Source: Sulfuricella sp.
GTDB lineage: Bacteria; Pseudomonadota; Gammaproteobacteria; Burkholderiales; Sulfuricellaceae
Assembly (NCBI GenBank): GCA_028713975.1
Contig: JAQTNE010000004.1
Span: 62,001 to 126,000, forward strand
DNA: 64,000 nucleotides
Direction of reading: 5' to 3'
Positions 22,886-26,035 of the stretch are shown here, piece after piece. Every line of letters begins with the position of its first letter. The stretch's first letter is position 1. The notes under the pieces were generated by a model, which did no database searches, had not been told where the DNA came from, and worked only from the letters and a program-made list of their open reading frames with translations. Position numbers and translations under genes: made by a program.

Positions 22886-23056
22886 ATGTGGCGCCGGCTT
22901 TGGTTCTTCGTGCGCCGCCTGTCCGGCGACGACGCCTACGAGCGCTACCTGAAACACCACGCCGCCGCCCATCCCGGCGAACCGCCGCTGTCGCGCAAGG
23001 CGTTCTTCAAGCTGGAGCAGGAGCGGAAATGGAACGGCGTGCGGCGCTGCTGCTAA
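22886..23056 (+). CDS. YbdD/YjiX family small protein
   Basis: 56 residues, starting MWRRLWFFVRRLSGDDAYERYL and ending WNGVRRCC. The family is a short protein encoded right after cstA/btsT in many proteobacteria. The motif pattern GDDAYERYLKHH...P-x2-S-x-KAF is conserved, and some homologues are needed for full transport. The start codon follows the cstA stop by 1 bp, implying translational coupling. Confidence 0.9.
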   Translation: MWRRLWFFVRRLSGDDAYERYLKHHAAAHPGEPPLSRKAFFKLEQERKWNGVRRCC

Positions 23057-23132
23057 GAACTCAGGCGCGGAAATGGCAGTAGGTCAGTACCGAAAACACC
23101 TCCATGAAATAGAAGTTTCTCTATTATTCACG

Positions 23133-23202
23133 GCTCAACGTTGACATAACCGACTGACGTGGCCTTATCGCGCAGCCCGCGTTAATGGGCACCCTGTTAG
23201 CT
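23133..23202 (-). repeat. attC-like recombination site after the antitoxin gene
   Basis: A 70-bp segment bounded by GCTCAAC (23133-23139, exact RYYYAAC) and GTTAGCT (23196-23202, one mismatch to GTTRRRY), in the outward arrangement of integron attC sites. The antitoxin stop codon lies inside the right-hand site, as often seen in cassettes. Inner dyads (GCCC/GGGC) are present but imperfect. The call leans on the neighbouring integrase remnant. Confidence 0.4.
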
Positions 23203-23496
23203 GTGACTTGCTTCAGCATGCAACTTCAACCCAAGTGCCCCGATGACTTTGAGGATGGTATCGAAGCCCGGACTACGCTCGCCGTAAAGTGCCTTGTAAA
23301 GGCTTTCACGGGACAATCCGACATCCCGTGCGACCTGTGTCATGCCCTTGGCGCGGGCAATATCACCAAGCGCCTTGGCAATGAATGCAGCATCCCCGTC
23401 GGCCTCTTCAAGACAGGCTTCAAGATAAGCCGCCATTTCCTCAGGAGTTCTGAGGTGTTCGGTGACGTCATAGCGAGTGGTAACAGTTTTACTCAT
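23197..23496 (-). CDS. HigA-like addiction module antidote protein
   Basis: 99 residues. The C-terminal helix-turn-helix (about 50-95: KGMTQVARDVGLSRESLYKA and FDTILKVIGALGLKL) is that of prophage-type antidote proteins paired with RelE/HigB-like toxins. The N-terminal stretch EHLRTPEEMAAYLEACLEEA is also typical. The frame is intact with a normal start 5 bp downstream of the toxin remnant. With its toxin broken, it is an orphan antitoxin that may still bind its own promoter or neutralise a toxin encoded elsewhere. Confidence 0.88.
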   Translation of the reverse strand: MSKTVTTRYDVTEHLRTPEEMAAYLEACLEEADGDAAFIAKALGDIARAKGMTQVARDVGLSRESLYKALYGERSPGFDTILKVIGALGLKLHAEASHS

Positions 23497-23501
23497 GGCA
23501 G

Positions 23502-23644
23502 CTACTCCGAAAGATTACGCGCGAGGCGCAAGGCGACTTTGATGTCTTTGGCTTGGGAGCCTTGTCCTCGCCAGCCAGCCGTTCGATTCTAGCCTGGACA
23601 CGCACCCTCGCCTAGATGGCGCGTAGGCCGTCGAGCGGTTGCAT
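23502..23644 (-). pseudogene. Remnant of a HigB/RelE-like toxin gene
   Basis: On the minus strand, the ATG at 23644 opens a frame reading MQPLDGLRAI, then an in-frame TAG, then ARVRVQARIERLA, which matches the early helices of TIGR02683-type toxins. The active-site core is missing. In another frame the sequence resumes with GSQAKDIKVALRLARNLSE and a stop at 23502-23504, the family's C-terminus. At 143 nt it has less than half the usual length. A nonsense change plus an internal deletion with frameshift are both visible, so it cannot make active toxin. Confidence 0.8.
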
Positions 23645-23653
23645 TTCTGGTGG

Positions 23654-23709
23654 AACTAACGTGTCTATTCAGCTGCCGCCGGAGGCGGTCGGCTTCTATT
23701 GGCAACAAC
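23654..23709 (-). repeat. attC-like palindrome between two small leftward genes
   Basis: On the minus strand it reads GAAGCCGACCGCC, loop TCC, GGCGGCAGCTGAA, and ends with GTTAGTT (23660-23654), close to the GTTRRRY core. The stem-loop with an unpaired base and the L'-to-R' spacing resemble class 1 cassette attC sites. The outer left core is eroded. It starts about 10 bp after the stop of the membrane-protein gene and ends 9 bp before the toxin remnant's ATG, exactly where a cassette junction would fall. Confidence 0.5.
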
Positions 23710-23718
23710 CTCATGAAG

Positions 23719-24219
23719 TCAATTGCCGAATACTTGCACAACTGGATCAAAGCCTCTTCCTACCATCAGTAGGCACACTCCAGATAGGAAACCGAACCGC
23801 TCCGCTCGGTATTTCATACCTGCAACGCGCTCCATTCCTCCGATCTTCACTTGCACCCGCCCCAATTTCTCGTCTATTTCTTCCAACGCTCTTTCTACTG
23901 GAATTTTCTTCCCTGTCGAGACGTCAAGTACGGTACTCATATTCAAGGCATTCTGTTGTATCTGAGAGCGCTGACCTCGCAGCTCGTCTTGCATATCAAA
24001 GGCCAAATACTGCCTGGATGCGCCTTCGAATCGAGACAACCCGGCAAGGCCTGAAATGAGTAAGGATAGCCACGCGGAGAGCTCAAACACTGTACTCACA
24101 ACTGAAGGGAACTTAGCCGTCTGCACAGAGAGGGCAAGAACCGTAAAAATAAGGCCTAGAAAGTAAAAGTCGAACTTCTGCTGGGTCTCGACCGCCGCCT
24201 CGTTATTACTTTTCGGCAT
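23719..24219 (-). CDS. Hypothetical two-to-three-helix membrane protein
   Basis: 166 residues, not recognised. The N-terminus is soluble (MPKSNNEAAVETQQKF). Two close hydrophobic segments occur at about 18-34 and 43-62, then a charged, probably coiled-coil domain (about 65-135, LEEIDEKLGRVQVKIGGME) and a final hydrophobic segment near 145-165. Base composition is lower in GC than neighbouring core genes. It reads away from the integrase remnant and is followed by an attC-like palindrome, so I read it as an integron cassette gene. Its function is unknown. Confidence 0.6.
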   Translation of the reverse strand: MPKSNNEAAVETQQKFDFYFLGLIFTVLALSVQTAKFPSVVSTVFELSAWLSLLISGLAGLSRFEGASRQYLAFDMQDELRGQRSQIQQNALNMSTVLDVSTGKKIPVERALEEIDEKLGRVQVKIGGMERVAGMKYRAERFGFLSGVCLLMVGRGFDPVVQVFGN

Positions 24220-24402
24220 ATGCCGGCTCCTTTCTTACATGCGTCGGGTTATGTCCGATATCGCCATCTAATGTTTCAAAGTTGAGCGTCAGAGCCGCGC
24301 AACGGCAAGTGCACGCTCTAACAACTGAATATAACCTGCACTAAATTCATAAAATGCTTTAAAAGCATTTTGTTTCTGTTTTTTAGGGCACTCTAAAAAT
24401 GA
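24220..24402. other. Possible attI region of a decayed integron
   Basis: A non-coding gap between the leftward membrane-protein gene and the rightward integrase remnant, where attI would lie. On the minus strand GTTAGAG (24322-24316) resembles an attI core. Nearer the integrase, CCCTAAAAAACAGAAACAAA is loosely like the end of attI1. An imperfect palindrome spans 24281-24322, but its core sites face the wrong way for an attC. This is weak evidence, recorded for its position. Confidence 0.3.
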
Positions 24403-24573
24403 ATGATGCTGCCGTCTTAATCTGCTTCGCCACGCTTGCCGGATCAGGTGCGCGGGAAAATTCGTCTGAAGCATTCGGCATTCGTACTGAACAAGCTTAT
24501 CTGGATTGGATTAAACGATTTATTTGTCATTCTGGCAAGCGCCCACCAAATGAGAGGGCGCGGATGAGGCGGG
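24403..24573 (+). pseudogene. N-terminal remnant of an integron-type integrase (IntI)
   Basis: The frame starting at ATG 24403 reads MMLPS, stop (TAA 24418-24420), then SASPRLPDQVRGKIRLKH. One base is missing at about 24475, after which the next frame gives GIRTEQAYLDWIKRFICHSGKRPP. This is the N-terminal SAM-like domain typical of IntI integrases. Similarity fades by about 24573 and the catalytic R-H-R-Y domain is absent, so roughly 50 of some 320-340 residues remain. It reads away from the cassette-like genes on its left, as intI genes do. Confidence 0.8.
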
Positions 24574-24691
24574 GTGTTTTTTGACGGGGCTTGCGGTTGA
24601 AGGGCGGACGGCATCTTCTCGATTCCCTGTAGCAAACAATTTGCTATACTGAATCCAGTCTATCTGGAGTGTCGAAAGTCCCACGATCAGT

Positions 24692-24946
24692 ATGTTCTAC
24701 GGCATCATCATCTCGATATTTTTCGAGATCAAGGAAAAACACCATTTGCCGCATATCCATGTCCGCTACCAAGACAATCGGGCATCGGTCGCCATTGAAG
24801 ACGGGGCATTGCTGGCCGGAGATTTGCCTCCCAGACAGCTACGAATGGTTCAGGTCTGGGCGGACTTGCACCGCGAAGAACTGTTTGCGGATTGGGAACT
24901 CACCAAAGAAGGTAGCGAGCCGTTCCGTATCGATCCACTCAAGTAA
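24692..24946 (+). CDS. DUF4160 protein, possible toxin-antitoxin partner
   Basis: 84 residues. The motif EIKEKHHLPHIHVRYQ is the DUF4160 signature (H-x2-PHxH), with VWADLHREELFADWEL further on. The gene is 11 bp ahead of a DUF2442 gene. The two families are very often adjacent and have been proposed as a toxin-antitoxin-like pair, though the activity is not established to my knowledge. The pair lies next to the integrase remnant, in line with horizontal acquisition. Confidence 0.88.
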   Translation: MFYGIIISIFFEIKEKHHLPHIHVRYQDNRASVAIEDGALLAGDLPPRQLRMVQVWADLHREELFADWELTKEGSEPFRIDPLK

Positions 24947-24957
24947 GGGGCGATGCC

Positions 24958-25209
24958 ATGTTGCTCGATGTAACCCGTGTTGCGCCAAAGCCCGATTTCA
25001 CTTTGTTTCTGGAATTCGAGAACGGGGAGCGCCGTTGTTTTAATATGGCCCCGTATATCGACCAGAAGCCATGGGTGCGGCTGAAGTTGAATAATGCATT
25101 CCTAAGCGCTTTTGTGGATTGCGGCACGGTGGTGTGGCCAGGCAATATCGACATTGACCCCGAAACACTCTACGACCTTTCGGTTCCTGTCGATTCGATT
25201 ACGACCTGA
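24958..25209 (+). CDS. DUF2442 protein
   Basis: 83 residues, starting MLLDVTRVAPKPDFTLFLEF and containing the family's closing pattern VVWPGNIDIDPETLYDLS. It is short, acidic and soluble. A GGGG stretch upstream of the ATG may serve as ribosome site. It is paired with the DUF4160 gene 11 bp upstream; in such pairs DUF2442 is the presumed antidote or DNA-contacting partner, which is inference. The gene converges on lgt. Confidence 0.88.
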   Translation: MLLDVTRVAPKPDFTLFLEFENGERRCFNMAPYIDQKPWVRLKLNNAFLSAFVDCGTVVWPGNIDIDPETLYDLSVPVDSITT

Positions 25210-25243
25210 GCGCTGGCAATGCGTCAACGCAGCGCCCATCCCT

Positions 25244-26035
25244 TCAGCTGCTAGTTTTATTCCGATAAGCCCAGCCCATCATAAAGACGCCCACCACGAC
25301 CATCGGCAGGGAAAGCCACTGGCCCATGCTGACACCTAGCGACATCAGGCCGAAAATACCGTCATCCGGGTTGCGGAAGAATTCTCCGATGAAGCGGAAC
25401 GTGCCGTAGCCCACCAGAAACAGTCCGGACACCGCGCCGCACGGCCGTTGCCGGCGCGAGAACAGCCACAGCAGGGCGAACAGGGCCAAGCCTTCGAGGC
25501 CGAATTCGTAGAGTTGCGACGGGTGGCGCGCCACGCTGTCGTGTTGCGGAAACACCATGCCCCAGGGCAGGTCGGTGGGGCGCCCCCACAGTTCGCCGTT
25601 GATGAAGTTGCCGATGCGTCCGGCGCCTAGGCCGAGCGGCACCAGCGGGGCGATGAAGTCGGTCAGGGCCAGCCATTTGATCCCGGTTTTTCTGGCGTAC
25701 AACCACATCGCCGCCAGCACGCCGAGAAAGCCGCCATGAAAGGACATGCCGCCTTTCCACACGGCGAATATTTCGAGCGGATGGGAAAAATAATAGCCCG
25801 GCTCGTAGAACAGTACCTCGCCCAGCCTGCCGCCCAGCACCACGCCCAGCACGCCGTAGAACAGCAGGTCATCCAGTTGCGCGACATTCAGCCCCGGCTG
25901 CGGCCCGTTCTTGATGCGACGCCGCCCGAGCAACAGAAACAGGGCGAATGCGGTCAGATACATCAGGCCGTACCAGCGGATGGCGAGCGGGCCGAGATGA
26001 ATGGCAACGGGGTCGAACTGGGGGTGGATCAGCAT
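25244..26035 (-). CDS. lgt: Prolipoprotein diacylglyceryl transferase
   Basis: 263 residues with about seven membrane helices. The Lgt signature is [19 protein letters not shown], and the essential His/Arg regions [11 protein letters not shown] and HPSQLYE are intact. It transfers diacylglycerol from phosphatidylglycerol to the lipobox Cys of prolipoproteins, such as the MliC-like protein and LptE encoded in this window. It appears monocistronic, and a dispersed hairpin repeat lies between it and ilvD. Confidence 0.97.

What the first reader, a model, noticed from the sequence alone, without database searches (positions are those of the whole stretch)
23133..24573. Fossil integron: broken intI, two leftward cassette-like units and two attC-like sites
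The sequence shows an N-terminal IntI-like fragment reading right (24403-24573) with a nonsense codon, a 1-nt deletion and a lost catalytic domain. On its left, reading the other way, are a small membrane-protein gene and a toxin-antitoxin unit. Each ends at a palindrome with attC-like core sites (23654-23709 and 23133-23202). Opposite orientation of intI and cassettes, a stop codon inside a core site, and a toxin-antitoxin cargo all fit known integrons. A sedentary integron reduced to two cassettes with a dead integrase, in the gap after cstA-ybdD, would be a good decay snapshot.
Basis: partly seen in the sequence, partly recalled or inferred. Interest (0 to 1): 0.75.

Follow-up and report, generated by a model that had tools for sequence, protein, structure and literature searches.

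The report
Dead integron worn down to promoter
A stretch between two household genes is the real remains of an integron (a bacterial gene-capturing device): its integrase gene is dead and mostly gone, yet what is left keeps what looks like the promoter for the captured genes, and remnants in related genomes often stop at that same point.

Summary
The fossil integron is real. The integrase stub (24399-24619, longer than reported) is 81-83% DNA-identical to intI genes of related genomes, has three frame lesions and lacks the catalytic part. The antitoxin unit with its site at 23133-23202 matches a cassette of a complete integron elsewhere. The site at 23654-23709 fails my attC model. The toxin is broken; the antitoxin and 166-aa ORFs are open. 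Eight congeners with the same flanking genes show no integron there; the genome holds an intact integron and other remnants elsewhere.

Beyond the finding: a sigma70-like block inside intI (24510-24538, minus strand, TTGCCA-N17-TTTAAT) faces the cassettes. It coincides with the most synonymously conserved window of intI in two nearly separate samples. Truncated remnants that keep the block end within 24 bases beyond it in 13 of 19 flank groups. I infer that it is the cassette promoter Pc and that decay tends to stop at it. The window's own stub ends 82 bases beyond, and about 15 attI-bearing remnant groups lost the block, so the rule is not general. Dead intI genes and Pc inside intI are known. 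No promoter activity was measured.

The parts
22886..23056 (+). ybdD-like gene after cstA, left flank
   Evidence: ORF; found in 13 of 13 relative pieces, which were chosen for that match
23133..23202 (-). attC site of the antitoxin cassette, weakened
   Evidence: attC covariance model R2 20.7 bits, E 0.01 over 64 kb; homologous units in G012 and G006 end in 70.7- and 69.9-bit attC sites
23197..23496 (-). antitoxin ORF, 99 aa, HI1420 family, open
   Evidence: TIGR02684 E 2.4e-35, PF21716 E 2.5e-29
23500..23650 (-). remnant of the HI1419-type toxin gene; start lost, internal deletion
   Evidence: alignment with four relatives and a second own copy; limits approximate
   Evidence: no R2 match with filters off, none with nhmmer; fold z -1.57; GTTAG core-like end at the expected cassette boundary
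23719..24219 (-). cassette gene, 166 aa, function unknown, open
   Evidence: no Pfam or NCBIfam family; one homolog (37%) among 398 other genomes of the order, lying in a row of attC matches
   Evidence: 89% identical to complete attC sites in G009, L050 and L051, which score 32.7 and 36.0 bits; itself 8.8 bits
24326..24398 (.). attI-side leader of intI, remnant
   Evidence: 91% identical to the own C8 locus over 24326-24418; aligned with intact integrons
24399..24619 (+). intI 5' remnant, three frame lesions, truncated, without the catalytic part
24510..24538 (-). putative cassette promoter Pc, TTGCCA-N17-TTTAAT toward the cassettes
   Evidence: position; synonymous constraint; remnant endpoints; not called by the stricter promoter scan
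24692..24946 (+). DUF4160 gene (DhiT-like), right of the stub, probably a separate insertion
   Evidence: PF13711 E 1.5e-22; NF048015 71.3 bits, under its cut-off of 100
24958..25209 (+). DUF2442 gene, neighbour of the former
   Evidence: PF10387 E 1.1e-11
25244..26035 (-). lgt, right flank
   Evidence: 20 of 22 family genomes, own included, have it at E<=1e-20

Best explanation
The locus is a chromosomal integron that arrived between ybdD and lgt in this lineage and then died. The integrase lost its frame and everything after about codon 74, the attI side and a first attC were fused by a deletion, and the cassettes froze in place. Shown: the remnants and their homology. Inferred: intI genes of this bacterial order carry the cassette promoter Pc inside the coding sequence (codons 38-47 of the G010 gene), reading backwards out of intI; after the integrase died, selection for expression of the captured genes protected that promoter, so that deletions often stop at its -35 box and leave a promoter stub. 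The window looks like an earlier stage, with the stub reaching 82 bases past Pc.
For: Homology to complete intI genes. Cassette nature of the antitoxin unit and of the 166-aa gene. attC model. Nothing similar at the place in 8 of 8 congeners with both flanks. Promoter: the place was named from the remnant ends (note) before testing; the 11-codon window labelled W40-K50 then ranks 1 of 316 in synonymous conservation over 18 complete intI genes (permutation P 0.0005 for this window, 0.044 for the maximum over windows), and again 1 of 310 in 24 genes from other families (Ile = ATT 15/15 against 107/255 elsewhere; Lys = AAA 14/15 against 154/400); one genome's gene (G055) is in both sets. In 15 remnants the -10 box is 87/90 identical against 647/796 in nearby coding DNA. 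Remnants that keep the block end 0 to +24 bases beyond it in 13 of 19 flank groups; own C8 and C10 lost DNA on the attI side of the block and still keep it.
Against: About 15 attI-bearing remnant groups (grouped by eye) lost the block; 13 of them bear other attI types, so protection is not general. The window's own stub ends at +82, not at the block. One of the 13 groups (G005 C1:470k) keeps only the -35 half; without it 12 of 18. TTTAAT lacks the A at position 2, and the consensus scan called no promoter. In remnants other hexamers are as well kept: GATCAG at -97 is identical in 9 of 9, the -10 box in 12 of 15 (eighth of 160 hexamers listed), the -35 box in 8 of 15, and the 16 bases beyond the block (154/176) differ little from the spacer (227/255). 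The block is among the best conserved DNA of the gene, so BLAST finds it preferentially; without the two block-only remnants it is 11 of 17. Family-wise significance of the first synonymous peak is only 0.044. A class 1 integron whose intI truncation deleted Pc is reported (PMC8876359, passage). No transcript data. attC evidence is weak for two of the three sites.
Confidence: 0.62

Rival explanations
1. Plain fossil: the integron died and is being deleted at random; the cluster of endpoints comes from a deletion or recombination hotspot and from easier detection of a conserved block, not from selection for a promoter.
For: Five remnants (G010 C54, C62, C67, G011 C107, G005 C1:310k) share one flank, so truncated copies can spread as a unit; about 15 attI-bearing groups lost the block; the window's own end is +82; other hexamers of the stubs are equally well kept.
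Against: 13 of 19 flank groups end there next to different DNA; own C8, own C10 and G013 C170 lost or scrambled DNA on the attI side and still keep the block; synonymous constraint in complete genes points to a function in living integrons too.
Confidence: 0.28
2. Reservoir in trans: the cassettes are not frozen; the intact IntI of contig 2 still recognises the attC site at 23133-23202, so the locus works as a cassette cluster served from elsewhere in the genome.
For: Complete IntI in C2, 482 bits, with eight attC matches on that contig; attC 23133-23202 is recognisable.
Against: Only one of three sites is recognisable by the model; one good attC is not enough to excise either cassette (general knowledge of integrons); the attI side is damaged.
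Confidence: 0.08
3. The fragment is from a phage or other tyrosine recombinase and the palindromes are terminators.
For: The terminator scan lists a stem at 23678-23693; the fragment alone scores weakly.
Against: 81-83% DNA identity over about 270-290 bases to integron integrases, several with attC arrays beside them; homologous cassette in a complete integron.
Confidence: 0.02

Closest known systems
intI pseudogenes ('pseudo-integrons'; PMC2426708, passages read)
   Same: Dead integrase by frameshift or deletion; nearly one third of intI genes there are pseudogenes and 20% of bacteria have more than one.
   Different: The passages I read do not treat where deletions stop or promoter retention.
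Decayed Xanthomonas chromosomal integrons (PMC12444791, passages read)
   Same: intI truncated or absent beside stable cassette arrays at a fixed chromosomal place.
   Different: There the platform is ancestral next to ilvD; here the place is occupied in one of nine genomes compared.
Class 1, class 3 and Pseudomonas stutzeri integrons with Pc inside intI (PMC8876359, passages, section 10)
   Same: Cassette promoter embedded in the integrase gene, driving the cassettes; class 1 Pc lies 223-252 bp from the attI crossover.
   Different: The proposed Pc lies some ten codons further into the gene than in class 1; the class 1 codon position is recalled, not from a call.
Integron remnants of Treponema phagedenis (PMC3607928, passages read)
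   Same: attC sites and cassettes left after loss of intI.
   Different: No integrase stub or promoter is described in the passages I read.

Membership tests
Functional integron | intI with IntI domain and catalytic residues | tested here: not met
   Only the 5' part remains, frame broken
Functional integron | attI next to intI | tested here: not met
   Leader homology stops at about 24326-24335; the attI core seen in intact relatives and in own C8 is absent
Integron remnant | intI-derived sequence rather than another recombinase | tested here: met
   TIGR02249 best; 80.9-83.5% DNA identity to integron integrases
Integron remnant | attC sites recognised by a model | tested here: inconclusive
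   One of three; the third by 89% identity to complete attC sites
Integron remnant | cassettes divergent from intI, ending at attC | tested here: met
   Orientation; homologous cassettes
Integron remnant | cassette promoter Pc | tested here: inconclusive
   Sequence and evolutionary evidence only; scan negative
Cassette cluster lacking intI (CALIN; definition of two or more attC recalled) | at least two attC sites by model without integrase | tested here: not met
   One attC by model in the window
HI1419-HI1420 toxin-antitoxin system | antitoxin of TIGR02684 | tested here: met
   E 2.4e-35
HI1419-HI1420 toxin-antitoxin system | intact toxin gene | tested here: not met
   Start lost and internal deletion

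The most novel reading that the evidence does not exclude
Across this bacterial order intI hides the cassette promoter inside its coding sequence (window W40-K50 of my alignment) under synonymous selection, and dead integrons are whittled down to 'promoter stubs': deletion eats the integrase up to the -35 box and often no further, turning captured cassettes into ordinary host genes with a promoter carved out of the integrase.
Probability: 0.5. Interest if true: 0.68.

Novelty: new member of a known kind. Interest (0 to 1): 0.5.

Why it matters
The locus is a clear decay snapshot. The wider pattern offers a testable answer to how captured cassettes may stay expressed after the integrase dies, a signature (intI 5' stubs) for finding domesticated cassettes, and a predicted Pc position for environmental integrons; the review I read says that Pc has been characterised in only some chromosomal integrons (PMC8876359).

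Tried and rejected
Phage-integrase reading: rejected. Rfam has no match in the region at gathering scores. attC model R1 with the RNAalifold structure left the core boxes unpaired, so R2 with hand-drawn core pairs was used. One training site was in the wrong orientation in A1 and was turned in A2; between A1 (36 rows) and A2 (33 rows) I also dropped L051:7018-7086, L053:7325-7382 and L055:12254-12310. Inverted-repeat search at 23050-25300 gave nothing. DNA folds: z -0.89 for 23133-23202, -1.57 for 23654-23709, -2.60 for 24268-24330, so only the last stands out from shuffles. The genome-contig scan with the 166-aa protein gave one planctomycete relative at 36%; no attC was reported in its locus at E<=0.1. 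The order-wide search with intI 5' DNA gave matches in 76 of 399 genomes, many of them at complete genes; I did not use it for endpoint counts.

Rows dropped: L103 (one stop) and L115 (C7, truncated) from 21 candidate intI genes, then the duplicate L024, leaving 18; L053 among these comes from another family (G055), whose gene recurs as L158 in the second set. The second set is 24 of the 30 loci given, six being of the own family; 83 of 200 genomes had a match there. In one search L180 is misaligned by one codon. For endpoints 15 groups were scripted; four longer remnants (G008 C17:113k +318, G016 C12 +159, G020 C281 +85, G008 C15 +163) were left out of that script and added back for 13 of 19. 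G012 C13 was dropped because it is a complete divergent intI. The block of G013 C478 and of G016 C6 was found by pattern, not by BLAST. Not counted: a 28-base piece in G007 C266, the C-terminal remnants G019 C29, G010 C61, G021 C139 and G011 C141, and short C-terminal hits that may be XerC/XerD.

Full report
Where it is. The region lies between ybdD (22886-23056) and lgt (25244-26035).

Integrase. The ORF at 24399-24584 matches TIGR02249 integron integrase weakly (18.4 bits, E 0.0011) and PF13495 (E 0.00045). DNA is the stronger evidence: 24329-24603 is 83.4% identical to G007, 24335-24603 83.5% to G018, and 24329-24619 80.9% to G010. G018 and G010 have complete genes, G007 a late frameshift. 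Homology ends at about 24619 next to unrelated DNA. The frame is broken by one insertion and two deletions of one base, and everything after about codon 74 of the G010 gene is gone.

Cassettes. The 99-aa ORF at 23197-23496 is an HI1420-type antitoxin (TIGR02684, E 2.4e-35). The toxin in front of it has lost its start and an internal stretch. The unit with its palindrome (23137-23579) is 82% identical to a stretch in G012, where the toxin frame is open and the unit ends in a 70.7-bit attC, one of six attC matches in a piece that also holds a full-length IntI match. In G006 the same pair also ends in a 69.9-bit attC. The 166-aa ORF at 23719-24219 has no known family. It is not found in the 21 other genomes of the family and has one relative in 398 other genomes of the order, at 37%; that one (L215 1495-1992) lies in a row of attC matches in its own orientation (50.8, 29.5, 18.0 and 29.8 bits; the weakest, just after it, has E 0.07). 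Both genes are therefore probably true cassettes.

attC sites. I built a covariance model from 33 sites of the family and order. In the 64-kb window its best match is 23133-23202 (-), 20.7 bits, E 0.01; the only other match listed at E<=10 is 12.4 bits. In the whole genome that site ranks 16 of the 17 listed at E<=1 (150 of 2081 first-look candidates were scored). 23654-23709 is not found with filters off. 24268-24322 scores only 8.8 bits but is 89% identical to complete attC sites in G009. It abuts the leader of intI, so a deletion has probably fused the attI side to the attC of a lost first cassette.

Other integron loci in the genome. Contig 2 has a complete intI (482 bits) and eight attC matches. 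Contig 7 has an intI lacking its start and one attC match. Contig 8 has a remnant with two attC matches and a gene with weak acetyltransferase matches. Contig 10 has a small remnant. Contig 3 has an attI-side remnant and three attC matches, contig 15 one, and contig 1 a last one of 19.4 bits that may be chance.

History. In 8 of 8 same-genus genomes where ybdD and lgt lie on one fetched piece, the interval (451-1681 bp) has no similarity to the window's interval above chance (best E 0.78); five further pieces held ybdD alone. I did not annotate what those intervals hold. The nearest by lgt (G003, 93%) has 787 bp there. The integron was therefore gained in this lineage, or lost in all the others; gain is simpler.

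The promoter idea. Comparing remnants, I saw that many stop at the same place in intI (note). A search with a full gene and leader in the 22 family genomes, repeated with two other reference genes, gave remnants that I placed on a common scale whose zero is the end of a TTGYCA-like -35 box read toward the cassettes. The block is 24510-24538 in the window. Of 19 flank groups that keep the block and are truncated after it, 13 end at 0 to +24. The other six end at +82 (window), +85, +133, +159, +163 and +318. Under even endpoints over 875 bases the chance is 2e-16; this assumes independence and no detection bias. Without the two remnants that consist of the block alone it is 11 of 17; without G005 C1:470k, which keeps only the -35 half, 12 of 18. 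Among eight groups found by their leader side with the window's own integron type, 6 end there (1.4e-8). Against this, about 15 attI-bearing groups lost the block (by eye); 13 match other attI types best, two the window's type (G008 C17:122k, G015 C144).

Constraint. If the block is a promoter, complete genes should show it. Over 18 complete genes the window labelled W40-K50 is first of 316 in same-codon conservation after correction for amino acid (P 0.0005 for this window, 0.044 for the maximum). Over 24 genes of other families it is again first of 310. There Ile is ATT in 15 of 15 and Lys AAA in 14 of 15 at the -10 codons, against 107 of 255 and 154 of 400 elsewhere. The two sets share one genome's gene. 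In 15 remnants the -10 box is better kept than nearby coding DNA (87/90 against 647/796, Fisher 4.7e-5), but remnants sharing flanks are not independent, some other hexamers are kept as well (GATCAG at -97 in 9 of 9), and the -35 box is identical in only 8 of 15, though its TTG is kept in 15 of 15. The consensus scan called no promoter in the region.

Known background. Pc inside intI is known in class 1, class 3 and P. stutzeri integrons, and a class 1 case is reported in which truncation of intI removed Pc (PMC8876359, passages and section 10). intI pseudogenes are frequent (PMC2426708, passages), also in Xanthomonas (PMC12444791, passages), and remnants after intI loss are known in Treponema (PMC3607928, passages). 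Six paper searches listed nothing, by title and start of abstract, on integrase decay stopping at Pc; the lists were capped (for example 12 of 85 papers) and the library is open-access only, so this is not proof of novelty.

Verdict. The promoter-stub reading is my inference, about 0.5 as a general rule. The window itself keeps the block intact, so its two open cassette genes may still be transcribed from it.

Noticed in passing
L010 4667-5036 (G000:C4:42666-43035): A second HI1419-HI1420 copy in the same genome also has an internally deleted toxin and an open antitoxin; both copies kept the antitoxin only.
   Followed up: partly
L041 9705-9776 and L007 9344-9456: A palindromic GGGGTCAGACTCGAT element lies at the broken start of intI on contig 7 and beside the cassettes on contig 8; it may be a small mobile repeat that disrupted intI.
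   Followed up: no
L042, L043, L049, L123, L124: Truncated intI with the same downstream flank occurs at five places in three genomes, as if the stub plus flank were itself a dispersed unit.
   Followed up: partly
L089, L138-L147, L155: attI-side remnants of another attI type, most without detectable intI, sit at many different places in relatives, which suggests repeated arrival and loss of whole integrons.
   Followed up: partly
window 24692-25209: A DUF4160-DUF2442 gene pair, toxin-antitoxin-like, fills the gap between the stub and lgt.
   Followed up: no
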